Source: an uncultured archaeon (GTDB lineage Archaea > Thermoproteota > Nitrososphaeria > JACIWG01). Taken from it: 64,000 nucleotides of DNA. Positions 1,420 through 13,893 of this stretch are shown here, piece after piece. A program made the translations under genes and the position numbers. Under the pieces are notes generated by a model. It worked only from the letters and a program-made list of their open reading frames with translations. It was not told where the DNA came from and made no database searches. Location: positions 1-64,000 of the forward strand of contig CALHLD010000010.1 of NCBI GenBank assembly GCA_938034445.1. The letters run 5' to 3'. The stretch's first letter is position 1. Each line of letters starts with the position of its first letter.

Positions 1420-2538
1420 ATGAAATATCAAGACATAATCGAATTAAAGAAACGCATGGAATTTAAAATGACAGAGCCTGAGACATTAGTCAAATTAGTC
1501 AAAGATGCACAAAACAAAGGGGAAAAGATGCAAAAAGATATGGAAAGATTGAGAAATATGGCTTCTAAGCTTACAAAACTTTTCCAGGACAAGGGTCTAA
1601 TTTTTACAGAATCTGTACTTAAAACCATACAGTTAAAACATAAATGTGCTGTTGGAATTGACGGAAGTTTTCAACTTATTGGCGGTGCTGGAGGAAAATG
1701 GTATGCCCCCATTAGTGTGGCTAGAATAATCTTTGAGGAGGGGTTCGGGACTCAACCTAGTGTAGACATCTTTTGGGCTAGTATAGAGGAAATAGAAGAG
1801 TTAGAGAATTATGAACCGAATAGAGTCGCGTCTGTTATGATGCTAAGTGGAGAAACGAAAGCGATCCTTAACTGGGGAACTTTAAACAAAGAGGCTTACG
1901 TTTTTATCGACGGGCCAATTGTTGATCCACCCATAGTAAGTTATGGAGGAAAAGAATACATTAAAGATAGGTGTGAAGGGATAAAGAAATGCATAGAAAA
2001 ATCTATTGCTATAGGATGTGTTAAAAGGTTTCGTGATAAGTTCTATATCGAGTATCTGAAAAACCTAATTTCTGAGGAATCAGAAAAAGAATATCTAAAC
2101 CACTTTCCAAGTGATCAACACCTTATAGCTTATGTTTTTGCTCAGGTGCGCTCTCAAGGCTATTACGGACCTCTATTCACCAAATGGATAGACATAAGCG
2201 CTTCAAATCCTGTGTACGAGTTATATAAGACTGAAGGGGTATATGTTGTCAGTTTATTCTTCCAAAAAGAAGTTAGATCCCAAATTTTGCGATTAGATGT
2301 GCCTTTCTTAGAGCCACCAACTGAAAATGCAGAGAAAATTGGTAATGAAATAGCTCATATAGTTAAGGCAGTAAATGAATGGACTTATCCCGGACAGGAC
2401 TTTCCTCTTCCAGTGCTTTTAGCTCACAATAAATGTAACATCCGCGAAGGATGTGCTGAGGTTCTCTATGAAGAAATAATGACAAGAAGTCGAACAACAG
2501 ATCCTCGTAACCAAACTATACTAACTTGGATAAGGTAA
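1420..2538 (+). CDS. NurA-domain nuclease (HerA partner)
   Basis: Predicted 5'-3' nuclease of the NurA family, which normally works with the HerA translocase in DNA end processing and in several antiphage systems. The NurA signatures are visible: AVGIDGSFQ (residues 77-85, metal-binding Asp81), AYVFIDGPI (159-167, Asp164) and a C-terminal PLPVLLAHNK segment like the family's closing motif. A charged helical region of about 70 residues precedes the domain. At 372 residues it is within the family range. The start is ATG with AAGGATG just upstream. It is the first gene of a five-gene operon; the HerA-like gene begins 6 bases downstream, which supports a nuclease-translocase complex. The link to DNA modification further down the operon is inference. 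Confidence 0.82.
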   Translation: MKYQDIIELKKRMEFKMTEPETLVKLVKDAQNKGEKMQKDMERLRNMASKLTKLFQDKGLIFTESVLKTIQLKHKCAVGIDGSFQLIGGAGGKWYAPISVARIIFEEGFGTQPSVDIFWASIEEIEELENYEPNRVASVMMLSGETKAILNWGTLNKEAYVFIDGPIVDPPIVSYGGKEYIKDRCEGIKKCIEKSIAIGCVKRFRDKFYIEYLKNLISEESEKEYLNHFPSDQHLIAYVFAQVRSQGYYGPLFTKWIDISASNPVYELYKTEGVYVVSLFFQKEVRSQILRLDVPFLEPPTENAEKIGNEIAHIVKAVNEWTYPGQDFPLPVLLAHNKCNIREGCAEVLYEEIMTRSRTTDPRNQTILTWIR

Positions 2539-2544
2539 TGTTTT

Positions 2545-4233
2545 ATGGTTGAAGAAAAAGAGTATGTTGGTGTAATATTAAGCGGAAGTACCACTACAGA
2601 AGCAGTATGTCAACTTCTAGAATCTGCTGAAAGGGGTGGTATAAAGGAAGGAATGTTACTTCTAGTTGAAAGTGGAGAAAGAAAAATCTTAGCAAGAGTA
2701 GCACAAATCATACCCTATAACGATTTTTACACAGAAGGTGATCCTTGGAGCGAAGCAAGGAGGAAAAATCTTCCTATACCAGAAGAGGTGGCAAGACGTT
2801 ATGAAGTTTGTAAACTTGACCTATTAATAGAAGTTCCGAGAGCAGAGATAAGGAATCCTCCACAACCAGGTGATTATGTCTTAAAGATAGACCCGAAAAT
2901 TCACGAAAAAGACATATTTGGTGTTTCCCAGAAAGACCTTAAACATGTTTGGTTTGGCTCTCTGATAGGCTATAAAGATGCACCTATACCTCTTTATATC
3001 GAAAACATTCCAATGCATATGGCAATCTTCGGCGTGACTGGAAGTGGAAAGTCTTTTACTGCAGGCGCGCTTATTGAAAAGCTTGCTGATATTCCTGTAA
3101 AAGAGAATGGTAATGCATCATATCCCATGATCATTATCGACGCTCATGGGGATTATGCTGATTATGTGAGTTATGTAGCCGAGGGAGGAAAACTCGGACA
3201 AATCGGATGGATAAAGAGATATGTTTTTCCAAAAGCTTATGTTCGAACTGATTTTCGACGTTTAGGCAAATTTATTCAACCTATAGGCATAAACTTAGAT
3301 TTAATATCTCAAAGGGAGCTGGCTGAGATTATAGTATTGTTTTATAAAGGGACAACTGAAGGTGCCGAACTGCAAATAGATGCAATCGATAATCTTTTTG
3401 ACAGAATGAAAGCCACTGGCTATGATAAGATACAAGAGATGTTCAGACCTGACCGCTACTTTGAAGATTTGTTAAAGATGTTGGAGCGATTTGCAAAGGA
3501 GACAGATATGCATTCTGCTACGAAAGGGGCAATAAGACGAGCATTAATTAACTTTGTAGTTATCGAAAAAGAGCATAAATTATTATCAACTAAGTCAGAC
3601 TTACAAGATGCAGAAGTTAGAAATGGCATAATCGAACAAGTGAAGTTTGTTGAAGAGATTACAAGAGACGGGGGTATTGCAATTTTTGATTTTTCAGCTG
3701 ATGCGGCTCCCGGTGTGGATCTTAAAACAAAACAATTCGTGATGACTTATTTGGCTTCGCTGTTATTTGAGCAATTTACTAGCTATAAAATAAAAAGGGA
3801 AGACAGATATCTTTTGTTCATTATTGAGGAAGCTCAAAACTTCTGTCCAGATAAAACATACCCTGTGAGCTCTAGCCTCGCACATACCAAACTATCAGCT
3901 ATAGCAACCCAAGGTAGAAAGTTTGGTCTATCCTTATGCTTAATATCTCAAAGGCCATCCTTTGTTGATAGGATAGTTCTATCGATGTGCAATAGTCTCT
4001 TCATACATAGAGTGTCACCAGAAGATGTTAGTTTTGTCAGAAGTATTAGTGGTGGTCTACCATCCTCACTCGTCCCAAAACTTACTACTATGAATCAAGG
4101 TGATCTAATCTTAACTGGTCAGATGAATACTGTACCCTTTCCATTAGTAATTCATGTAGCTGGGCGTCAAGTTAAGCATACAGTTGGAGAGATAAAAGTT
4201 TGTGAGAACCTTGCCAAATTAAGAGGGATTTGA
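2545..4233 (+). CDS. HerA-like hexameric DNA translocase
   Basis: FtsK/HerA-type ATPase expected to pump double-stranded DNA and to feed the NurA nuclease. The N-terminal 150 residues look like the HAS-barrel, with a DPWSEARRKNLPIP segment. Walker A is GVTGSGKS (163-170) and Walker B is YLLFIIEEAQNF (about 422-433), where the second Glu is the usual catalytic residue. ATQGRKFGLSLCLISQRPS is a typical HerA sensor/arginine-finger region. The length of 562 residues is normal. It lies 6 bases after the NurA gene and one base before the giant ATPase gene, so all three are surely co-transcribed. Housekeeping HerA-NurA loci usually also carry Mre11-Rad50; none is seen here, which points to a specialised accessory copy. 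Confidence 0.88.
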   Translation: MVEEKEYVGVILSGSTTTEAVCQLLESAERGGIKEGMLLLVESGERKILARVAQIIPYNDFYTEGDPWSEARRKNLPIPEEVARRYEVCKLDLLIEVPRAEIRNPPQPGDYVLKIDPKIHEKDIFGVSQKDLKHVWFGSLIGYKDAPIPLYIENIPMHMAIFGVTGSGKSFTAGALIEKLADIPVKENGNASYPMIIIDAHGDYADYVSYVAEGGKLGQIGWIKRYVFPKAYVRTDFRRLGKFIQPIGINLDLISQRELAEIIVLFYKGTTEGAELQIDAIDNLFDRMKATGYDKIQEMFRPDRYFEDLLKMLERFAKETDMHSATKGAIRRALINFVVIEKEHKLLSTKSDLQDAEVRNGIIEQVKFVEEITRDGGIAIFDFSADAAPGVDLKTKQFVMTYLASLLFEQFTSYKIKREDRYLLFIIEEAQNFCPDKTYPVSSSLAHTKLSAIATQGRKFGLSLCLISQRPSFVDRIVLSMCNSLFIHRVSPEDVSFVRSISGGLPSSLVPKLTTMNQGDLILTGQMNTVPFPLVIHVAGRQVKHTVGEIKVCENLAKLRGI

Positions 4234-4237
4234 TTTG

Positions 4238-7200
4238 ATGAATTCAACAAAAATTTTTGATAGGTTACCAAGTGATGCAGGAGTAACCTTCGAAGGCTTT
4301 GAAGAAATTAGGATAAAAAGTAGAGAATCTGTCAGAAACAAGTTAGAAGAGTTCATGGAATACTGTAAGAATGCGAAAAAGCCAGCGATACGTGTTATAT
4401 TAGGGGAATGGGGTGAAGGAAAGACCGATGCATACAGAAGATATGTACAGCAAAAATCCCAAGCAGAGGGAAATTATGCCTTTTTTGTATCTGCTTCAAC
4501 CCTATCTAATGGTTATGAAGTTCCTAATATAAGAAAGCTTTTAGAAACAACATCTCTTTCAGCGGTTAGATTCTTAGTAGTCTTGTTTAGTTGTGTAAGG
4601 GAAGAATCAAAAGAAACCAAGATCCCTGGAGTAGAAAAGTACAAAGATTCTTATGCGTATTTAAATGATGTTTTAGCAAATTTAGTTGGTGAAAAGAAGA
4701 CACGAAGAATATTTATTTTCATAGACGAATTTGAGGAACTCCTCCTTAATCCACCAAGACTTAACGATATCATCTCAGGTATAAAAGAGACTATAAATGG
4801 TAGATTTACTTCAATAGACGAAAACGGTGAATATGCGGGATGTACTCATCTTATAATAGCAGCTACTCCAGATGCTTTTTATCGACTTCAGGTAGATGAG
4901 GAAACATCATTAATTTTTGGAGGCCTAGGGAGAAGAGCTGCAGTTATAGATTTACCACAAATACGTAAACAAGAAGGAATGGAGTTTCTTTATGCCCTTC
5001 TCAAGTACTCATATAAAAATAATTTACCTCAACCGCTACCATTTGATAACCTTGGGATATTTCACGCCCTATTTCGGATAACTCAAGGTAACCCTGGCAA
5101 TTTGGTTAGTTTGTTCACACGTCTAATGAATAGCGCGAGAATAGATCATAATCAAATCAAGATTATAGACGGCGAACATCTACTGAAATTTTTAGAGAGA
5201 GAGCAAGTTTTCGTATATGGCGGAACCACAGCATGTTTGGAGACGGAGGCATTCTTTCGAATTCTTAAGGTCGTTGAAGAACAAAGAGTGAAAGAAATTG
5301 GGCAAAAATGTGGAGTTCTGTTAAAGACCCTCTGCGGTGAACTGAAACCATTTTCTACTGAAGAACTAGAAAGCAGATTTGGACGTGATGATATTAAGAA
5401 CCTCATTAGCATAATAAATAACGATTTGAAAAGTAGAGAAGGTATAGAAAGAGCAATACTTAAGGTCAGTCCTTTACGTGAAGGGAAATCATTTCAGGAT
5501 ATTCTTGAGGTTTTCAAAGAATACATAACAATGGAAAGAGGTAGAAAGTACATTAAAATAGATAATTATTCCGAACCACTTGAGGACTTTGAAGATAGGA
5601 TTACTTGGTTTTCAATTAACGGGGACAAGATAATACCTCAAATCTATCTTCCTTCTGAGAAATACAGCTTAATGTCCTTCTTAGAAGGAATAACCTCAGA
5701 GAGGGCTTTAGATATAGAGCGTCTCGTTAATAGAAAATTATGTAAAGACGAATATTATTACCTCGCAAGCGATGAGTTACTCTCTCAAATATTTCCTACA
5801 CCTGTACCAAGGGAGCTTGAATTCATCAAAAATAGAGAATTGAGAATGAAGCTTTGGAGAGAAGTCACAAGAAATTTGGCTGAACAATATGAGATATACA
5901 TGCCGACAGCCTTTATGAACTTACTTGAAATGTCAAAACTGTTTGAGTTAAGAGAGATAGAAAGGCGTGTGTTAAAATCTCCTGCTAGATTTGCTGAACT
6001 TATAATTGATGGAATAAAGGTGAACAGCTTATTCTATTCCATAAACGGTGATGTTAAGGGTTCGGACGTCGAAGAATTAAACCGTTTGATAAGAGGGACA
6101 AAACCACCAATCCACTGTGTAGTACTGCTCTATACAGGAGAAATGACTCAAGAGGCAGAAGACAAAATCATAAACAAAGAACTTGGAAAAGAAGGTGAAA
6201 ACATCATTTTAGACATACATCTACATCCGACCTTAGCCAAACGAATTATTAGTATACACAAGGCAAGCTTTCAACAAGAGGAGTTAAACGAAAGTTTGTT
6301 CCTGTCTGCGATCAAAAAAATTGTTACTCAAGAACTTGATTTTCAAAATAAGGTGAAAGATTGGCTTAATTCACAAGAAAAGAAAGGAGTTGTGATCATA
6401 GACTTATCTATTGAAGCTACTTCAAATCTTAGGGAGTTTGCTGACGCTCTTAAGTTTTATATTAACTTTATGGGGGAGGAACATACAGCCCGAGAAATAT
6501 TCAATAAAAACAGAAATGAGTTACTCAGGTTTATCAAGTACGAGGCTAAAAAAATCAGTATAATCCCCGATATAGAGCTTCCAAAGTTCATAAGATTATC
6601 AGAAGACCTTAAGAATAATGGTTTTTTATCATCATCAAAAGATAGATATCTACTACAGTTTCATCCTGTAGAAAAAAGGATACTTGCTATTCTCAAAAAA
6701 GAAACTGAGCTCTTAGAAAGCGACCTTGCAAATTACTTCATTGTTAAAAGTCCAAGGTTCTTAAAGGATGTTTTCCTACCAACTTTAGAATATAAAGGTC
6801 TCATAAAACGTAAAGGAAACAGTTACCTACTTAATGATAAAAGACAATTGTTTGCTGAGGTTAAGCTTGAATTTCAAAAATTTAAACAATTATCAGAAAT
6901 GGAGAAATATCATGACTATGGCTACGTCTTCATGACCAAGGAGAGAGATTACCGTTTTATTACACTCAGGGAATTCGAGACCTTGGTAGAAAACCTTTAC
7001 CAGAAGACACAAGAAATGGTTGGACTTAATGATGAGGTAGCACTTCAAAAATTATCATTATTGAAGCGATTATTACAACATTTCATGGAAGAATTTTTAC
7101 CTCTCTTTAATGGCGCTAGCAGTAAAGCTGAGGATGTAATAATAGACGTCCGTAGACTTCATTCTAATCTTAAAGAGAGCCTAGACCAGGTTAGAGTTGA

Positions 7201-8464
7201 ATGTGATAAGTGGCTTAAGCTAAAATTCAGCGTTGAGAACATAAGTGAATATAGAGATGTAAAGAGGATATCGGAAAGTGTAGAAGAGTACATAAAGTAC
7301 GGGTATGATGAGGTAATGAAGGTTGTTAATGAGGAGTTCGTAAAAAGTGATGATGCGCTAAACGCCTTCTTCTTCAGGAAGAGTGATGAAGAAGCCTTCT
7401 ATTTTAATCCAAAACTTTACCTAATATCCACACGTAAATCCCAACTTGATCAAATTTTTACAAGGATAGATAAAATTGTTAAAGAAGAATTAAATAATAA
7501 ATTTCGAACTCTTGATCAAAGACAGGATCAAGTCGAGCTTAAAATAAGGGAAAAAGTAGTTCCTGAGAAGAATAGAGTTTCTAACCTGCTTCTGGGAATA
7601 TTGGAGAAATTGGTGAAGAATATACTTCCTGATTTACAGCCAGCAATTTTTGAAACGATAAGCTTAACAGATATAAGAGAGTATGTTCTCCGCGAGATAC
7701 CGTCGATAAATTCGAACTTAGACACTATATCGAGTTGCTTAACTTTTTTTGATAAAGTAGTTGCAAGTGAAAGTTCATTCCTAGCCGTGCTTGAAGAAAG
7801 CAAGAAACTAAGTGAGCACATACTCTTTATTTTTGACGTCAAAGAATACGACGTCATAGCTAAAAATTTTAACTCCATATTAAACAGCGTAGAAAGTGAA
7901 GAATATAACAAGATCTCAGGAGACCTCACCCTCCAAGACGCTCAAACTTTATCACAAAAAATGGAAAATCTAAAACAAATGTTTGATGAACTTACAAAAC
8001 AAGTAAAAGACGAGAAATCATCAATAGACAAGGCATGGTCTAAATATTCAAGAGATTCAATCGAATATCTCGATAACACCGAATATATCCTTAGGTTGTT
8101 AGAAAAACGTTATGGGATTAATATTGGAGAAGTTGTAACTGAGTTAAGGAAGATACGAGAAAGTATTAGTGTGGGACAAATTCTAAATCTTAAACTAAGA
8201 CTTAGCGAAATTGAGCACATGAAAACTCAACTCCGTCAGTATTTTTATGAAGTTATAAAACCAGTATTGAAGGAAAAAGAGCTTCAGCTTTTGGAACTAC
8301 TTGTCAAAAAAACAAGGTTAGAGGGGAAAGAATGGTGGTCTAATCAAGAGCTTTATCAAATTGCCAAAAACGAACTTGGCATCCAATCAGAGGAGACCGA
8401 AGAAATACTTCAGAAACTTATTGAACAAGGGCTTTTTAGACGAGGGGTATCTCTATCCTTCTGA
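4238..8464 (+). CDS. Giant P-loop ATPase with winged-helix and coiled-coil regions
   Basis: A protein of about 1,408 residues whose family I cannot name. Walker A is GEWGEGKT (near residues 56-63) and Walker B is RIFIFIDEFEELL (near 158-169), followed by an AAA-like sensor region (LIIAATPDAFYRL). A winged-helix-like stretch lies near residues 810-860 (EKRILAILKKETELLESDLA). A long charged helical, coiled-coil-like region follows, and a second winged-helix-like stretch closes the protein (LQLLELLVKKTRLEG to the end). The size and architecture recall the large ATPases of BREX (BrxC/PglY) and the ATPases of bacterial dpd clusters, but I see no specific match. ATG 4238 is preferred over TTG 4235 because AGAGGGATTT precedes it. 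It is translationally close to the HerA gene. Confidence 0.75.
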   Translation: MNSTKIFDRLPSDAGVTFEGFEEIRIKSRESVRNKLEEFMEYCKNAKKPAIRVILGEWGEGKTDAYRRYVQQKSQAEGNYAFFVSASTLSNGYEVPNIRKLLETTSLSAVRFLVVLFSCVREESKETKIPGVEKYKDSYAYLNDVLANLVGEKKTRRIFIFIDEFEELLLNPPRLNDIISGIKETINGRFTSIDENGEYAGCTHLIIAATPDAFYRLQVDEETSLIFGGLGRRAAVIDLPQIRKQEGMEFLYALLKYSYKNNLPQPLPFDNLGIFHALFRITQGNPGNLVSLFTRLMNSARIDHNQIKIIDGEHLLKFLEREQVFVYGGTTACLETEAFFRILKVVEEQRVKEIGQKCGVLLKTLCGELKPFSTEELESRFGRDDIKNLISIINNDLKSREGIERAILKVSPLREGKSFQDILEVFKEYITMERGRKYIKIDNYSEPLEDFEDRITWFSINGDKIIPQIYLPSEKYSLMSFLEGITSERALDIERLVNRKLCKDEYYYLASDELLSQIFPTPVPRELEFIKNRELRMKLWREVTRNLAEQYEIYMPTAFMNLLEMSKLFELREIERRVLKSPARFAELIIDGIKVNSLFYSINGDVKGSDVEELNRLIRGTKPPIHCVVLLYTGEMTQEAEDKIINKELGKEGENIILDIHLHPTLAKRIISIHKASFQQEELNESLFLSAIKKIVTQELDFQNKVKDWLNSQEKKGVVIIDLSIEATSNLREFADALKFYINFMGEEHTAREIFNKNRNELLRFIKYEAKKISIIPDIELPKFIRLSEDLKNNGFLSSSKDRYLLQFHPVEKRILAILKKETELLESDLANYFIVKSPRFLKDVFLPTLEYKGLIKRKGNSYLLNDKRQLFAEVKLEFQKFKQLSEMEKYHDYGYVFMTKERDYRFITLREFETLVENLYQKTQEMVGLNDEVALQKLSLLKRLLQHFMEEFLPLFNGASSKAEDVIIDVRRLHSNLKESLDQVRVECDKWLKLKFSVENISEYRDVKRISESVEEYIKYGYDEVMKVVNEEFVKSDDALNAFFFRKSDEEAFYFNPKLYLISTRKSQLDQIFTRIDKIVKEELNNKFRTLDQRQDQVELKIREKVVPEKNRVSNLLLGILEKLVKNILPDLQPAIFETISLTDIREYVLREIPSINSNLDTISSCLTFFDKVVASESSFLAVLEESKKLSEHILFIFDVKEYDVIAKNFNSILNSVESEEYNKISGDLTLQDAQTLSQKMENLKQMFDELTKQVKDEKSSIDKAWSKYSRDSIEYLDNTEYILRLLEKRYGINIGEVVTELRKIRESISVGQILNLKLRLSEIEHMKTQLRQYFYEVIKPVLKEKELQLLELLVKKTRLEGKEWWSNQELYQIAKNELGIQSEETEEILQKLIEQGLFRRGVSLSF

Positions 8465-8490
8465 AGAATTATGGCACTAGTCGATGAACC

Positions 8491-9300
8491 ATGTTGAGTT
8501 TTAGAGCTAAAAGAGGAATTTTATATATGCAGATGCGCAGGGAGCTTTATCAAAAGGTTTCATGTAAGAGAGGCAAAGGTGTAGGGATTAAGTTTTCTCT
8601 TTGCTTTTATAACCCTCATGAAGTTTATGTTGCCTTAACAAAAAATTCTGAGGTTAAAAGATGGTTAAACTTTATATCTAATCACTATCTTCCACCTCGA
8701 GCTAAGGTTCTCTTGATTTATCCTTGCTCAGCGGAAAAACCATATCATAAATCAAGGTCTTATCAACGACTATTTAATACCCTCACAAAGTTAGGAGAAA
8801 TGAGAAAAGAGGTTCACCTGATGACAATTTCTGAACCATTTGGTCTAGTTCCAGAGGAATTTTTTGGGAAAAGGACTCAATGGCATGACTGGGAAAACTC
8901 CTGGTACGATTGTCCTGGACTATTTGAATGGTGGTGTAATAAATACGATCAGCCTTATAGCAGAGAAGAAGTGGACAAATGTATACAAATTTTAGCCTCT
9001 TATGTTGCTCGCTTTTTTCAAAGGGCGAAGTCGAATAACTGCTATTCAAAATTCATCGCTTTTGTCAGAACTTATTCTTCCCACTTAAAGGTAAAAAACG
9101 ACCATACACACAGAAGGATAATCGAGTCAGCTGCAAAGCTTGCCGGTATTCAGATAGACCTGCTTCCACCTAAACATGTTATCGCAAACATAGTATCTGA
9201 AAATGGATGCTTCGCATGGGATATGTATGGGGTTACACATTCAGACGCTCAAAAATATCTACTTAACTATTTGAAGAAAGTGTTGATTAATGAGTTTTGA
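8491..9300 (+). CDS. DUF5591 protein, archaeosine-synthase-like
   Basis: The core motif PCSAEKPYHKSRSYQ (residues 78-92) matches the PCSA-x-KPY-x-x-S signature of the DUF5591 domain in archaeosine synthase ArcS. ArcS changes the 7-cyano group of preQ0 after its insertion into tRNA. Here the domain stands alone (about 230 residues), without the TGT-like or PUA parts of tRNA-acting ArcS. It is followed, with an 11-base overlap, by a DpdA-like transglycosylase. That pairing suggests action on a 7-deazaguanine in DNA, or as a partner in its insertion. The conserved part starts near FYNPHEVY (residue 39), so the true start may be one of the Met codons at residues 13 or 15 rather than ATG 8491. Confidence 0.75.
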   Translation: MLSFRAKRGILYMQMRRELYQKVSCKRGKGVGIKFSLCFYNPHEVYVALTKNSEVKRWLNFISNHYLPPRAKVLLIYPCSAEKPYHKSRSYQRLFNTLTKLGEMRKEVHLMTISEPFGLVPEEFFGKRTQWHDWENSWYDCPGLFEWWCNKYDQPYSREEVDKCIQILASYVARFFQRAKSNNCYSKFIAFVRTYSSHLKVKNDHTHRRIIESAAKLAGIQIDLLPPKHVIANIVSENGCFAWDMYGVTHSDAQKYLLNYLKKVLINEF

Positions 9301-10306
9301 AACACCCTTTTTGTGGTTCACACAGACTTTAAATGGAGCACCTAAGCCTTGGCTATATTTTAAGATAGATGGATTAATGGTGAACGCATACGAAATACTT
9401 CAAAACAAGTCAGCTAATGAAAAGATTAGGGGTGAAGGGATACACGAATATACAAAGTTTGATGATTTAATAATGATGGATTCCGGAGGCTTCCTGTTTA
9501 TGAAAAAGGAAAGTGTTGATGTCACTCCAGAAATGATTTTAAGGCTTTATGAGGATAGTGAACCAAATTTTGGCGTTATCTTAGACCATCCATTGACTCC
9601 TAACTTACCATACACGATTAGTAGGTGGAGGCGGTTGAAGACGCTAAATAATATAAAATGCATGCTCAAAATAAGGCGAACAAATAACCCTGAACTAATC
9701 CCAGTAGTTCACGGCTACAGTATTAAGTCAATAAACTGGTACCTAAAGAAGTTACAGGAGATAGGAGACTTTAACATTTATGGTATAGGAAGCTTAGTTC
9801 CATCAGTTTATAACACTAAAGGCGCAGGCGGAATCTACAACATTATAAGAATTATATCGTGGGTTAAAAAGGCTTTGCCAAATAAACTTGTTCACGTATT
9901 CGGAGTCGGCAGCACTTTAACCATGCACTTAATGTTCTATGCTGGAGCGGATTCAATCGACAGCTCATCCTGGAGGACAAAAGCTGCATTCGGTGCAATC
10001 CAACTACCAGGAATAGGCGACAGGCATATTTCACCAAAAAAAAGGCATAAGAAATATACTCAGCTGAAAAGGGAGGAAATCAAAATACTTGATAAATGCG
10101 AATGTCCAGCCTGTAAGAAAAGCGGAATCGAAGGATTAAAAGAAAGCTTTACTTTAAGAGCATTACATAATGCTTGGGTCTATCAAAAGGAAATCGAAAA
10201 AGTAAGGAAACTTGTTAAAGATAATGAATATAAGGAGTATGTTGAACAGACTATAGGGAAAACAAGATTTTCAAAAGTGTTAGATATTATTAAAGACCAG
10301 CACTAA
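9290..10306 (+). CDS. DpdA-like DNA-guanine transglycosylase (TGT homologue)
   Basis: A TGT-fold protein expected to swap guanine for a 7-deazaguanine base such as preQ0. Visible parts are MMDSGGF (62-68; Asp64 corresponds to the general base of TGT), GADSIDSSSWRTKAAFG (219-235; Asp224 in the nucleophile position) and a zinc site CECPAC with a distant His (Cys270, Cys272, Cys275, His293). Canonical tRNA TGTs carry FDCVxPTR in the nucleophile region. The IDSSSWR version is what I recall for the DNA-acting DpdA family. The protein is short at 338 residues and has no PUA domain, which tRNA-acting archaeal TGTs usually have. It starts inside the end of the DUF5591 gene, so the two are translationally coupled. 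Confidence 0.8.
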   Translation: MSFETPFLWFTQTLNGAPKPWLYFKIDGLMVNAYEILQNKSANEKIRGEGIHEYTKFDDLIMMDSGGFLFMKKESVDVTPEMILRLYEDSEPNFGVILDHPLTPNLPYTISRWRRLKTLNNIKCMLKIRRTNNPELIPVVHGYSIKSINWYLKKLQEIGDFNIYGIGSLVPSVYNTKGAGGIYNIIRIISWVKKALPNKLVHVFGVGSTLTMHLMFYAGADSIDSSSWRTKAAFGAIQLPGIGDRHISPKKRHKKYTQLKREEIKILDKCECPACKKSGIEGLKESFTLRALHNAWVYQKEIEKVRKLVKDNEYKEYVEQTIGKTRFSKVLDIIKDQH

Positions 10307-10364
10307 CATAAGCCCTCATTAGATGGTTTCTTAAATCTCGTAAGGTCTCCTTTTGTTAATTTTG

Positions 10365-10491
10365 CAGAACTATCTACAAAATTACTATTCCAAAGCCCTG
10401 ACTTTCTAACCTTACCACTCCAAGCAAAATTTTCCAACCATTTTTCAGAAGGCTTTTGATTGTAGATAGTTCTGAAAAAAGGTTAGAAAGT
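10365..10491. repeat. Two interleaved inverted repeats (pseudoknot-like layout)
   Basis: A 15-base arm CAGAACTATCTACAA (10365-10379) is perfectly complementary to TTGTAGATAGTTCTG (10460-10474). A 13-base arm ACTTTCTAACCTT (10401-10413) is perfectly complementary to AAGGTTAGAAAGT (10479-10491). The order is A, B, A', B', so the two pairs cross as in an H-type pseudoknot and cannot form a single nested hairpin. The element fills the gap between the DpdA-like gene and the convergent gene at 10559. It could be a structured RNA, a recombination or protein-binding site, or a terminator region. No gene is seen from 10307 to 10558. Confidence 0.6.
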
Positions 10492-10558
10492 TCTTACTCA
10501 CAGATGTTTTTAAGAACTTTAAATTATGTCGCTTTAAGTACAATTTGGTCTTAAAATT

Positions 10559-10822
10559 TTATTCTTTTATCCATTTTCTTATCCTAGTATAGGCTTCTTT
10601 AATGTTACTCAAATCTAGTTTCACCTCTTTCCCATTCTCTGTTAAGAGGATAAGATGATCTTCTCTACAATCAACATCCTTAATCTCTTCTTTCTTGTAA
10701 GTGATGATCCATTCGTTAGGGAGGATGTAGCCCATTATAGGGTCTGGTGAAGATATGGTAATAACCAGCTTGTCGTCTAATAAATGGACTGTTTCCCTGT
10801 AACCTTTAAATTTACTATGCAT
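10559..10822 (-). CDS. Small protein of unknown function
   Basis: An 87-residue protein from ATG 10822, preceded by CTAGGATAA. An in-frame TTG at 10912 would give 117 residues, but it overlaps 43 bases of the upstream nucleotidyltransferase gene and its extra residues look less protein-like. The sequence alternates short beta-strand-like stretches (DKLVITISS, EWIITYKKEE) with a charged C-terminal helix. I recognise no family. It follows the nucleotidyltransferase gene closely on the same strand and may be co-expressed with it. Confidence 0.5.
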   Translation of the reverse strand: MHSKFKGYRETVHLLDDKLVITISSPDPIMGYILPNEWIITYKKEEIKDVDCREDHLILLTENGKEVKLDLSNIKEAYTRIRKWIKE

Positions 10823-10869
10823 CTTATTTATCCTAGTAGATATGCAAAATAAAATTTTGGTATCATGGG

Positions 10870-11589
10870 CTAGATGTAGCCTCTTTCCTTTAATATTTTT
10901 CTTAGCATCCAATTTTTTGATGCTAGCTTTGAAAGTGTTTCCTCGATTCTGTCTTGTGGTGGAACAGTAAATTTTATGAACGTTCCTGTACGCCCGAATT
11001 CGTCTCTTTTTCCCAGCACTCTTTTCCTCTCAATAACCGTTTCTAAAGAGATGTTTAGTTCTCTAGCTACTTCAGCCTCTTTTCCGATTATGGACCTTTC
11101 TATGTGCCCAAATTCTTGTGGAAGTATTAGAAGGAGTCTTTTATTTACACCCTTTTTTCTAATATTATCTTCTATTTCCTTTAGATCGATGGTTCCACCG
11201 AACCCATAAAATTCTATTTCATTTTTCAACATTTTGGCCAATGGAAATGAGACACACGTTTTCTCATAGGGGTCTAGGTAAATGTACGCTTTAGGAGTCG
11301 AATTTGGTGTCGCCTGTACCACTTCCCTCCTATATATTGTGTACTCTTTTTCTAGTACAAACTCGATCTTATAGGATGGAATATATTCTGTAAAAAATAC
11401 GTCGATGTCACTATTTTTGTTCACATCTCCTCTTGCAATGCTTCCGTAGGTTCTACCGTAAATGCTGTTATCATGTAAGAGTTTGATAAGTTTCTTTGCA
11501 GTTTCCCTTTTCTCTTTAAATATCTTCCACCTATCTTCATCATAGAATACTGTTCTCTCTACACCGCCTTTCTCTATCTTTTTACCCAT
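10870..11589 (-). CDS. Predicted archaeal nucleotidyltransferase (COG1665-like)
   Basis: A pol-beta-type nucleotidyltransferase. The motif YGSIARGDVNKNSDIDVFF (residues 48-66) is the GS-x(8-11)-D-x-D signature with both metal-binding Asp residues. A third acidic position is plausible in KAYIYLDPYEKT. The C-terminal part holds a helix-turn-helix-like stretch (EAEVARELNISLETVIERKR), and GTFIKFTVPPQDR is typical of a conserved archaeal family. The substrate is unknown. At 239 residues it is complete. A small unknown gene follows in the same direction. Confidence 0.75.
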   Translation of the reverse strand: MGKKIEKGGVERTVFYDEDRWKIFKEKRETAKKLIKLLHDNSIYGRTYGSIARGDVNKNSDIDVFFTEYIPSYKIEFVLEKEYTIYRREVVQATPNSTPKAYIYLDPYEKTCVSFPLAKMLKNEIEFYGFGGTIDLKEIEDNIRKKGVNKRLLLILPQEFGHIERSIIGKEAEVARELNISLETVIERKRVLGKRDEFGRTGTFIKFTVPPQDRIEETLSKLASKNWMLRKILKERGYI

Positions 11590-11679
11590 TCACATGAATA
11601 ACCATTTATCGCCCCTATATAAATAATGTATTTAATATGCAATGTTTATATTATAAGCGTACAATTATCTATTTTAAGA

Positions 11680-12861
11680 ATGTCCTCGATCGAGTCTTTA
11701 GGCCAAAAAATTTTGCTAGGAACCTCAGGATGGGATTATGAAGATTGGGTTGGGCCATTTTATGTTTCCAATGAAAGAAAGCTTTCTCTGTACTCGCAGG
11801 TTTTTAAAACAGTTGAAATTGATTCAACATTCTATTCTTTTCCTACACCTAATTTTATTAGAGGGATTTCTAGAATTGTTCCAAAAGATTTTAAGTTCTC
11901 TGTCAAGCTTCCCAAAGAGATAACGCATAAGAAATTGTTGGATGTTAAGGAGGGTGCTTTAGATGACCTAAATAGATTCTTGCATATTTTATCCCCTCTT
12001 GAAGAGGATGGCAAATTGGGTGCGCTCTTAATCCAAATGCCGCCGAAGGAAAAGTATTTAATGTTCAAAAACTTTAAGGAGTTTATAAGCGATATTGATG
12101 TTGAAAGATATGATTTTGTAGCAGAGTTTAGGGATAAAAGTTGGTTAGATGATGAAGTTTTAAAACTGTTGAGGGCTTATAAGGTCTCATTTTGTGTTGT
12201 TGATGAACCTCTATTGCCACCTTTGCTTGAGGTTACTGGAAGAATTGCTTATGTTAGGTGGCATGGTAGGGGTAATAGGCCATGGTATTATTACGAATAT
12301 CGTGAGGAAGAGTTGGTTGAATGGGTTCCAAGATTAGTGAAGCTTGTTCAGGACGTAGAAGTATTATATGGGTACTTTAATAATCATTTTAGAGGTTATG
12401 CGCCCAAAAATGCTTTGCAGATGCTAAAACTTTTGGGTATCGCTAATACTAGTCAAGAGGAAGTGTTGAAACAAGTTTTAGGCTATTTTGATAAACAGTT
12501 TGTTAACCATATAAAGGAGAGGGGTTCTGATGTCCTTTCTAAGGATGACCTTAACTTAATGCTTTCACTGTTTATTGATAAAAGGAGATTAGAGCGGGCT
12601 ATTGAAGATATTGATAAAGTTAGAGTTACTGAAATTGGATGCGAGATTATTTGTGGAACTGTTAAAGAGTACGTTTTCGAAATAAGTTTGAAGGAGAAAA
12701 GAATTTTTCACGACTGCGAAGATTGGAAGAAGAGGGCTTCAGCAAAACAGTTTTGTAAGCATATTGGAAGCGTTCTCCTATATCTTTCAAAAGAGATTTC
12801 GATTAACATTTTGAAAGACATTATCAGAAACATAGATGATTGGACTTTCCAAACGTCATAA
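11680..12861 (+). CDS. DUF72 protein with C-terminal SWIM-like zinc finger
   Basis: The first 250 residues are a DUF72 (COG1801) TIM-barrel: LLGTSGWDYEDWVGPFY at the start, then EIDSTFYSFP, FVAEFRDKSW, YVRWHGRG and YGYFNNHFRGYAPKNA. The biochemical role of DUF72 is not settled. About 140 further residues end in a SWIM-like finger, HDCEDWKKR ... QFCKH. There a His replaces the first Cys of the usual CxC-n-CxH ligand set. SWIM fingers bind nucleic acid or protein partners. I choose ATG 11680 (MSSIES) rather than ATG 11626, because the domain starts soon after it and the extra residues are low quality. The gene is convergent with FEN-1. Confidence 0.8.
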   Translation: MSSIESLGQKILLGTSGWDYEDWVGPFYVSNERKLSLYSQVFKTVEIDSTFYSFPTPNFIRGISRIVPKDFKFSVKLPKEITHKKLLDVKEGALDDLNRFLHILSPLEEDGKLGALLIQMPPKEKYLMFKNFKEFISDIDVERYDFVAEFRDKSWLDDEVLKLLRAYKVSFCVVDEPLLPPLLEVTGRIAYVRWHGRGNRPWYYYEYREEELVEWVPRLVKLVQDVEVLYGYFNNHFRGYAPKNALQMLKLLGIANTSQEEVLKQVLGYFDKQFVNHIKERGSDVLSKDDLNLMLSLFIDKRRLERAIEDIDKVRVTEIGCEIICGTVKEYVFEISLKEKRIFHDCEDWKKRASAKQFCKHIGSVLLYLSKEISINILKDIIRNIDDWTFQTS

Positions 12862-12870
12862 AAAATTTGT

Positions 12871-13893
12871 TTAGAGCCAATCTTTTAAAGACGGACTTCC
12901 AATATGCCTATAAAATTTTGTAAGCCTTTCAACTATCTTATCTATGTTCCTTTCTGAAAAGTTTCTTTGCCTAAAAAATTCTATTAGCTCATCTACTTCA
13001 GGTTCTTTAAACGCTATTGAATATTCGGTAACTATTTTAGGTTGCAAGAAGATTTTCCGTATCACCTCAAAATTATTGATTTTTCCCCTAACCTTACTAT
13101 TTGGAATCTTTTCTATGCAACCATATTCTTTTATTAAATTATAAGCTTTTTTTGGTCCAATCTTTGGTACACCCTTATTGAAGTCGGTTCCGCTTAAAAT
13201 TGCTACATCAATTAACTGTTCTCTACTCAATTTAAGGTGCTTTAAAGTTTCTTCTAAACTAACTAGTTCTGGAACTAAAGGTTTAATCATCATCTTTGAT
13301 GGAAGAAATTCTGTACCCTGGATAGTAACATATCTAACAATTCTGGGGGCGCCGTATAATAGAGCGTCATAATCTTGTGTAGCAACAGCCCACACATCAT
13401 TTCTAGAACACATGTAAGATGCTTGTGCTTCTGCATCCTCTGGAGCAAAAATTATGGGAACACCCATTAACTTGAACATGTTTACAGCATCTTCAACAAG
13501 ATCCTTGTCTAAGGTTGCTGAAACAACAGCTTTAGAAAATGCTTTTCTCAAGTCCCCCTTTTCTATTTCTTCCTTCCATTCCTTAAGCGCTTTAGCCCTT
13601 TGTGCTTTTCTTTCTTCGAGTGTTTTCAATTTTAGAACATTTGGTATACCATCGAAGACCATTACCGGTTTTATACTATATTCGGCCATCAATTTTGTGA
13701 TTCTTAAGGAGGCGCCAAGTAAATGTGAAGTTATTCTTCCACTATTATCTTTTAAGAGTGTGCCATCAGGCATTCTAACGAGTGCAAGAAATTGGTATAG
13801 GAGATTATTTGCGTCGAAGGCTATAATCTTATTTGATAAAGTAGATAATTTTATCTTTTTAGCTTTAACTAACGTGGAAAGTCTTGCTCCCAA
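12871..13893 (-). CDS. fen: Flap endonuclease 1
   Basis: Structure-specific 5' flap endonuclease that removes RNA primers and repair flaps. The XPG-type catalytic acids are visible: Asp27 (IIAFDANN), Asp81 (VMVFDG), Glu152 and Glu155 (APEDAEAQ), Asp174 and Asp176 (TQDYDAL), and the helix-2-turn-helix region GTDFNKGVPKIGPKKA. The 340 residues match the archaeal family. The C-terminus ends SPSLKDWL, which resembles a PCNA-interacting peptide but lacks the usual leading Gln. The protein begins MGARLSTLV, close to the family's MG-x-L start. The gene is single and ends 9 bases from the DUF72 gene. Confidence 0.95.
   Translation of the reverse strand: MGARLSTLVKAKKIKLSTLSNKIIAFDANNLLYQFLALVRMPDGTLLKDNSGRITSHLLGASLRITKLMAEYSIKPVMVFDGIPNVLKLKTLEERKAQRAKALKEWKEEIEKGDLRKAFSKAVVSATLDKDLVEDAVNMFKLMGVPIIFAPEDAEAQASYMCSRNDVWAVATQDYDALLYGAPRIVRYVTIQGTEFLPSKMMIKPLVPELVSLEETLKHLKLSREQLIDVAILSGTDFNKGVPKIGPKKAYNLIKEYGCIEKIPNSKVRGKINNFEVIRKIFLQPKIVTEYSIAFKEPEVDELIEFFRQRNFSERNIDKIVERLTKFYRHIGSPSLKDWL

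What the first reader, a model, noticed from the sequence alone, without database searches (positions are those of the whole stretch)
1420..10306. Candidate archaeal DNA 7-deazaguanine modification and restriction operon (NurA-HerA-giant ATPase-DUF5591-DpdA)
Five plus-strand genes with gaps of -11 to 26 bases form one operon: NurA-like nuclease (IDGS, IDGP motifs), HerA-like translocase (GVTGSGKS), a P-loop protein of about 1,400 residues, a free DUF5591 protein (PCSAEKPY motif) and a short TGT homologue with DpdA-like nucleophile region (IDSSSWR) but no PUA domain. Known: DpdA in bacterial dpd clusters inserts preQ0-type bases into DNA and is linked to restriction genes; HerA with nucleases serves antiphage defence. 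Inference: the last two genes mark self DNA with a 7-deazaguanine, and the first three degrade unmarked DNA. I do not know a described system with this exact composition.
Basis: partly seen in the sequence, partly recalled or inferred. Interest (0 to 1): 0.92.

Follow-up and report, generated by a model that had tools for sequence, protein, structure and literature searches.

The report
Archaeal base-swapping DNA restriction operon
An archaeal five-gene operon, found again in the same order in a Korarchaeon and in a related form in a family that is probably Sulfolobaceae, pairs enzymes predicted to swap and decorate guanines in DNA with a DNA pump, a nuclease and an origin-recognition-type ATPase; it is best read as a new kind of self-marking defence, and some Sulfolobus viruses carry only the marking half.

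Summary
The five genes are there as described (1420-10306, + strand): NurA, HerA, a 1409-residue ORC/Cdc6-like AAA+ ATPase, a free DUF5591 (ArcS-core-like) protein and a PUA-less TGT homologue. The same five-gene order occurs in Ca. Methanodesulfokora washburnensis at 54-75% identity, while a flanking housekeeping gene (FEN1) is only 40% identical between the two genomes, so the cassette appears horizontally transferred. The same parts in other orders occur in G133 and a Desulfurococcales MAG, with a PCNA-like clamp gene beside the TGT. A family inferred to be Sulfolobaceae carries a six-gene version (TGT-DUF5591-HerA-ATPase-coiled coil-NurA). There the second TGT, DUF5591 and this HerA are all present in the same 11 of 19 genomes and all absent from the other 8. 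Sulfolobus viruses STSV1, 2 and 4 carry only the TGT-DUF5591 pair, nested among host copies: a modification half without a restriction half. Grouping with archaeal tRNA TgtA is rejected (AU p=0.0002). The protein also misses the DpdA membership cut-off, so 'DpdA' is a functional analogy. Best reading: a new variant of 7-deazaguanine DNA restriction-modification. The DNA base itself is unmeasured, and the host genome lacks a recognisable QueC.

The parts
1420..2538 (+). NurA-family 5'-3' nuclease, accessory paralogue (372 aa); the acidic and His positions conserved in NurA relatives are kept
   Evidence: PF09376 6.8e-9; GIDGS, E in SGETKA, FIDGP and LAHNKC conserved with relatives. The housekeeping NurA is a separate gene on contig C6 with HerA and Mre11/Rad50-like genes
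2545..4233 (+). HerA/FtsK-type DNA translocase (562 aa), Walker A GVTGSGKS
   Evidence: PF01935 2.3e-24; PADLOC HerA 3.6e-33; 74.5% identical to the Korarchaeal homologue; below the CedD and repair-HerA cut-offs
4235..8464 (+). Giant ORC/Cdc6-like AAA+ ATPase (1409 aa, TTG start or ATG at 4238), Walker A GEWGEGKT, Walker B FIFIDE, possible C-terminal winged helix
   Evidence: Motifs; best folds ORC/Cdc6 for residues 1-470, model pLDDT 54; distant profile match to BrxD-like ATPases, probability 83.5, E 8e-6; weak WHD_MCM8 at 1350-1400, 0.0059, below cut-off
8527..9300 (+). Free DUF5591 protein (ArcS catalytic-core-like), 257 aa from the likely start ATG 8527 (the longest ORF starts at 8491)
   Evidence: PF17884 4.4e-15; nearest NCBIfam match ArcS 1.9e-16, below its cut-off; model pLDDT 84 with best PDB match AF0587 (2q07) 4.4e-5; PCSxxKPY and WYDCPGLFEWWC conserved in five relatives
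9290..10306 (+). Short TGT (base-exchange transglycosylase) homologue, 338 aa, no PUA domain; D64, D99, D224 and the Zn site C270/C272/C275/H293 kept; H141 in place of arcTGT Gln169
   Evidence: PF01702 2.7e-27; alignment to arcTGT 1iq8; residue table; trees and AU tests

Best explanation
The operon is a restriction-modification-like defence system. The TGT homologue cuts guanine out of host DNA and inserts a preQ0-type 7-deazaguanine (inferred). The DUF5591 protein then adds an amine donor to the nitrile in the way ArcS adds lysine (inferred), giving an archaeosine-like or amino-acid-bearing mark on self DNA. The ORC/Cdc6-like ATPase loads on or senses DNA that lacks the mark, HerA pumps it, and NurA degrades it (inferred). 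Shown here: the genes, conserved catalytic residues, conservation of the gene set across distant archaea, horizontal transfer of the cassette, strict co-occurrence of the two halves in one family, and virus carriage of the marking half alone.
For: Same five-gene order in Korarchaeota, with 54-75% identity against 40% for FEN1 of the same genomes, so the cassette moves horizontally. Same parts reordered in G133 and a Desulfurococcales MAG. A six-gene version TGT-DUF5591-HerA-ATPase-coiled coil-NurA, contiguous in 9 genomes of family f23. In 19 f23 genomes the second TGT, DUF5591 and HerA are all present in the same 11 and absent in the same 8; p=1.3e-5 ignoring phylogeny, 0.018 by genus. Window-type HerA occurs only in genomes that also have the giant ATPase, 9 of 9, even when unlinked. 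STSV1, STSV2 and STSV4 carry TGT-DUF5591; no HerA or ATPase match in 50,697 phage records; virus TGTs nest in the host clade. The TGT keeps both catalytic aspartates and is not a tRNA TgtA. Relatives sit beside sliding-clamp-like genes, a PLD nuclease and BrxD-like ATPase, or Mre11/Rad50-like genes: DNA rather than tRNA contexts. T. kodakarensis ArcS adds lysine to free preQ0 nucleoside without tRNA (PMC11298593).
Against: No measurement of modified DNA or of immunity. The host genome (95% complete) has no recognisable QueC, QueF or VUT-type transporter, so the precursor must be salvaged or differ. His replaces the base-recognition Gln, so the inserted base may not be preQ0. The ArcS-type final His after PCSxxKPY is Tyr in the window family. 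NurA-HerA and ATPase sets also occur without an adjacent TGT, and within f23 the system looks largely vertically inherited, which is less typical of defence. The precise tree position of the window TGT differs between two analyses.
Confidence: 0.6

Rival explanations
1. Genome maintenance rather than immunity: the TGT pair marks replicated DNA (hence the clamp-like partner), and the NurA-HerA-ATPase complex uses the mark in end resection, fork repair or recombination.
For: NurA-HerA is the archaeal end-resection machine (PMC4351679, PMC9960219). Relatives of the TGT lie beside PCNA/Rad9-like genes, Mre11/Rad50-like genes, and a gene of the archaeal Nre family. f23 inheritance looks mostly vertical.
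Against: The genome already has a NurA-HerA-Mre11/Rad50-like set on C6. The cassette is patchy and transferred between distant lineages. Viruses carry only the marking pair.
Confidence: 0.16
2. Modification-dependent (type IV-like) defence: the TGT and DUF5591 proteins recognise or strip 7-deazaguanine marks on viral DNA and NurA-HerA-ATPase destroys marked DNA.
For: STSV-type viruses encode a TGT-DUF5591 pair and so probably mark their own DNA. All catalytic residues are kept, so exchange could run in reverse.
Against: A type IV system would not need its own copy of the same enzyme pair as the virus, and the virus pair would then make the virus more vulnerable. Virus TGTs nest among host ones, suggesting the same chemistry.
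Confidence: 0.08
3. The TGT-DUF5591 pair modifies RNA (a second tRNA or rRNA site) and only shares a transcript with an independent NurA-HerA-ATPase defence or repair module.
For: The folds are those of tRNA archaeosine enzymes. This genome has no other intact DUF5591. NurA-HerA also occurs without an adjacent TGT.
Against: A canonical 526-535 aa TgtA is on C3. The window TGT lacks the PUA region, and grouping with archaeal TgtA is rejected. The two halves co-occur perfectly in f23 even when unlinked. Viruses carry the pair.
Confidence: 0.12

Closest known systems
Dpd systems of bacteria (DpdA-K; dPreQ0/dADG in DNA)
   Same: A TGT homologue as presumed DNA base exchanger, genetically coupled to nucleases and ATPases
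   Different: TGT not over the DpdA cut-off. No DpdB/C, YprA-type helicase, PLD nuclease or que genes in the operon. Uses a DUF5591 protein and NurA-HerA instead. A genuine DpdA lies elsewhere in this genome
BRC, BREX-related capture systems (PMC12839542)
   Same: HerA translocase, ORC/Cdc6-type AAA+ ATPase and, in a subset, a TGT predicted to mark self DNA
   Different: BRC has PglZ, DUF6079, DUF4007, STAND and GNAT; none of these appears in this operon, which has NurA and DUF5591
BRIGADE (PMC12458937, haloarchaea)
   Same: Archaeal defence prediction combining 7-deazaguanine genes with nucleases
   Different: BRIGADE is defined by YprA helicases with PLD or PD-(D/E)XK nucleases; none here. 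The genome's C40 locus (DpdA plus BrxD-like ATPases) shares parts with Haloarcula locus L098
HerA/FtsK capture systems coupled to Orc/CDC6 ATPases (PMC10853773)
   Same: HerA plus ORC/Cdc6-type ATPase plus nuclease, mobile neighbourhoods
   Different: Published versions have active and inactive REase domains and no base-modification genes; here NurA is the nuclease and a TGT-DUF5591 pair is present
ArcS / TgtA archaeosine tRNA pathway
   Same: DUF5591 catalytic core with PCSxxKPY, TGT catalytic fold
   Different: Two separate small proteins, no PUA; Tyr instead of the final His of the ArcS-type motif; His instead of base-recognition Gln in the TGT

Membership tests
Dpd (bacterial 7-deazaguanine DNA R-M) | DpdA equivalog | tested here: not met
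   NF041059 54.6 bits against cut-off 200; AU test does not reject grouping with DpdA, p=0.23
Dpd (bacterial 7-deazaguanine DNA R-M) | DpdB, DpdC and YprA/PLD restriction genes in the cluster | tested here: not met
   None among the five proteins in PADLOC or Pfam; a DpdA fused to a DUF6884/DpdC-like domain is on C40
Dpd (bacterial 7-deazaguanine DNA R-M) | preQ0 or ADG deoxynucleoside in host DNA | not testable with these tools
   needs mass spectrometry
BRC (BREX-related capture) | HerA/FtsK translocase | tested here: met
   PF01935 2.3e-24
BRC (BREX-related capture) | PglZ, DUF6079, DUF4007, STAND NTPase | tested here: not met
   No Pfam match in the operon over cut-off; the giant ATPase is only distantly BrxD-like
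BRIGADE | two YprA-family helicases | tested here: not met
   no helicase of this type among the five proteins
HerA/FtsK-ORC/Cdc6 capture systems | HerA coupled to an ORC/Cdc6-type AAA+ ATPase and a nuclease | tested here: met
   9 of 9 window-type HerA genomes hold the giant ATPase. The fold model is low confidence
HerA/FtsK-ORC/Cdc6 capture systems | REase and inactive REase inserted before the wHTH | tested here: inconclusive
   No REase Pfam hit; the middle of the 1409-aa protein was not modelled
Archaeal tRNA TgtA | TgtA equivalog with PUA domain | tested here: not met
   TIGR00432 108.8 bits against cut-off 350; 338 aa, no PUA match; AU rejects grouping with archaeal TgtA, p=0.0002
TGT superfamily enzymes | catalytic Asp pair and Zn site | tested here: met
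   D64, D224, C270/C272/C275/H293
ArcS (archaeosine synthase alpha) | DUF5591 core with PCSxxKPY motif | tested here: met
   PF17884 56.3 bits against cut-off 26; motif in five relatives
ArcS (archaeosine synthase alpha) | full-length TGT-like + core + PUA architecture | tested here: not met
   257-269 aa free protein; NF040592 59.8 bits against cut-off 440
Housekeeping NurA-HerA-Mre11-Rad50 repair operon | linkage to Mre11-Rad50 | tested here: not met
   No such genes in the operon; the housekeeping set is on C6

The most novel reading that the evidence does not exclude
A distinct archaeal class of restriction-modification in which host DNA carries an amino-acid-conjugated or archaeosine-type 7-deazaguanine made by a TGT plus a free ArcS-core protein, enforced by a NurA-HerA-ORC ATPase machine, with tailed spindle viruses stealing only the marking pair. 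It would have a sister version in a family that probably includes genetically tractable Sulfolobaceae.
Probability: 0.4. Interest if true: 0.92.

Novelty: new variant of a known kind. Interest (0 to 1): 0.82.

Why it matters
It would extend DNA 7-deazaguanine restriction-modification to Thermoproteota with a different marking chemistry (a free ArcS-core enzyme) and a different attack machine (NurA-HerA plus an ORC/Cdc6-like ATPase). It gives a function to the many PUA-less TGT paralogues of Thermoproteota, and a reason why STSV-type Sulfolobus viruses carry a 'queuine tRNA-ribosyltransferase' gene. The prediction is directly testable: the marked base can be looked for in DNA of strains that have or lack the pair, and in STSV virions.

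Tried and rejected
Viral contig scans for the window-type DUF5591 and TGT found nothing; the f23-type DUF5591 scan returned only STSV2 and STSV1. Considered that the f23 HerA might be CedD of the DNA-import system: rejected, 61-70 bits against cut-off 600. Considered contamination: FEN1 on the same contig is archaeal. PDB sequence search of the giant ATPase and of NurA gave nothing useful. No paper mentions DUF5591; no paper found describes this gene set. QueF absence is uninformative for archaeal QueF-L because no archaeal control rang with that model. The original STSV1 paper is not held, so whether STSV1 DNA is known to be modified was not checked; one search fetched an unrelated paper through a wrong DOI.

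Full report
What is there. Five plus-strand genes lie at 1420-10306: NurA (PF09376 6.8e-9), HerA (PF01935 2.3e-24), a 1409-residue ATPase without a Pfam family over cut-off, DUF5591 (4.4e-15) and a TGT homologue (2.7e-27). Quoted motifs and coordinates are correct. Comparison with relatives moves the likely DUF5591 start to 8527. The window is the first 64 kb of a 73.8-kb contig of a 1.8-Mb genome, 95% complete; flanking genes (FEN1, aldehyde ferredoxin oxidoreductase, ribonucleotide reductase) are ordinary. GC of the operon is 0.363 against 0.339 for the rest.

The enzymes look active. NurA keeps the acidic and His positions shared by NurA proteins. HerA has Walker A. The giant ATPase has GEWGEGKT and FIFIDE; the best PDB folds for its first 470 residues are ORC/Cdc6 proteins, although the model is weak, pLDDT 54, and profile comparison links it to BrxD-like ATPases. 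DUF5591 models well (pLDDT 84) and its best PDB match is AF0587. The TGT keeps the arcTGT catalytic aspartates and the zinc site. One signature stands out: arcTGT Gln169, a base-recognition residue by established knowledge of TGT structures, is Gln in every tRNA TGT and every DpdA sampled, but His in the window protein and in nearly all short archaeal TGTs. The inserted base may therefore not be preQ0 itself.

Relatives. A scan of 84,980 species with the DUF5591 alignment found three loci. Ca. Methanodesulfokora washburnensis (Korarchaeota) has exactly NurA-HerA-ATPase-DUF5591-TGT. A Desulfurococcales MAG and genome G133 have TGT-PCNA-like-DUF5591-HerA-ATPase, with NurA last in G133. A Nitrosopumilus MAG has DUF5591-TGT beside a PLD nuclease and a BrxD-like ATPase. 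G216 has NurA-HerA-ATPase running off its contig. Identities to the Korarchaeal proteins are 61, 75, 54, 70 and 65%, while FEN1 is 40%, which argues for horizontal transfer of the cassette.

A second, larger branch. In family f23 (names withheld by the tool; I infer Sulfolobaceae because Sulfolobus virus genes nest inside it) nine genomes have TGT-DUF5591-HerA-ATPase(~1015 aa)-coiled coil(~230 aa)-NurA in one run. In others the marking pair and the HerA block are both present but apart. Among the 19 f23 genomes examined by all three searches, a second TGT, DUF5591 and this HerA are present in the same 11 and absent from the same 8 (1/C(19,11)=1.3e-5; by genus 5 against 3, 0.018). These p-values ignore shared ancestry. 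The f23 ATPase is only distantly related to the window one. This HerA is not CedD. Across 398 phylum genomes, the nine with window-type HerA are all among the eleven with the giant ATPase, in several cases hundreds of kilobases apart.

Viruses. STSV1, STSV2 and STSV4, which are related tailed spindle viruses, carry adjacent TGT and DUF5591 genes, 60-62% identical in DUF5591 to f23 hosts. No phage record matches the f23 HerA or ATPase. Virus TGTs nest within the host clade. A virus that carries the marking half without the attack half is what is expected if the mark protects DNA from the attack half.

DNA or RNA. The genome has a canonical TgtA on C3. An AU test rejects a clade of the window TGT group with archaeal TgtA (p=0.0002) and does not reject one with DpdA (p=0.23). 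Placement relative to other short TGTs differs between the careful and the quick tree. Neighbours of related TGTs are DNA proteins: PCNA/Rad9-like, Mre11/Rad50-like with HerA on a cyanobacterial plasmid, PLD and BrxD-like, and QueE/QueD with BrxD-like on a Haloarcula plasmid. T. kodakarensis ArcS adds lysine to preQ0 nucleoside without tRNA (PMC11298593), so a free DUF5591 protein acting on preQ0 in DNA is chemically plausible.

Weak points. No QueC, QueF or VUT-type transporter was found in the host genome; apparent QueC hits include argininosuccinate synthase- and MnmA-like proteins, judged by reading their N-termini. The same lack applies to canonical TgtA, so salvage is the simplest explanation, but it is unproven. 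The window DUF5591 family has Tyr where f23, viral and haloarchaeal proteins have His after PCxxxKPY; the ArcS motif itself is quoted from memory.

Known systems. Bacterial Dpd, BRIGADE (PMC12458937), BRC (PMC12839542) and HerA/FtsK-ORC capture systems (PMC10853773) each share part of this design. None described in the papers searched has TGT + DUF5591 + HerA + NurA + ORC-like ATPase. Verdict: a new variant of DNA-base-exchange restriction-modification, probably defensive; chemistry and immunity remain to be shown.

Noticed in passing
G000 contig C40, locus L131:2438-13319: Second candidate 7-deazaguanine DNA-modification locus in the same genome: a 573-aa true DpdA (PADLOC 1.9e-89) with a DUF6884/DpdC-like tail, divergent from a BrxD-like ATPase, a second short TGT and a 287-aa protein, then two more BrxD-like ATPases; NurA-HerA genes at the contig end.
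   Followed up: partly
L065 (G281), L066 (G231), L051 (G133), L095 (Desulfurococcales): Divergent PCNA/Rad9-like sliding-clamp genes sit directly beside short TGT genes (PDB PCNA profile match 2.7e-28 for two of them), hinting at replication-coupled base exchange.
   Followed up: partly
L097 (Aulosira laxa plasmid6) 2781-9999: HerA-like, Mre11-like and Rad50-like genes followed by a short TGT on a cyanobacterial plasmid: the theme outside archaea.
   Followed up: partly
L104 (Haladaptatus plasmid) 8815-13514: Two TGT-DUF5591 fusion proteins (673 and 654 aa) near a 1462-aa AAA protein.
   Followed up: no
L060 (G270), L023 (G304), L034 (G117), L038 (G123): HerA followed directly by a short TGT in two other archaeal families (f14, f26), without DUF5591, NurA or giant ATPase detected nearby; in G270 an archaeal Nre gene lies two genes upstream.
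   Followed up: no
G000 contigs C6, C7, C10, C11, C31, C40: Six NurA-domain matches in one 1.8-Mb genome, at least four of them next to HerA-type genes.
   Followed up: partly
L094:11843-12694: In the Korarchaeal locus a possible Cas4/PD-(D/E)XK-type nuclease gene (weak Pfam match) directly follows the TGT; it has no counterpart in the window.
   Followed up: no
L194 (G404):10296-10865: DUF5591 gene in an f23 genome with no TGT or HerA within about 10 kb, in a genus whose other sampled members lack DUF5591: possible remnant or provirus.
   Followed up: no
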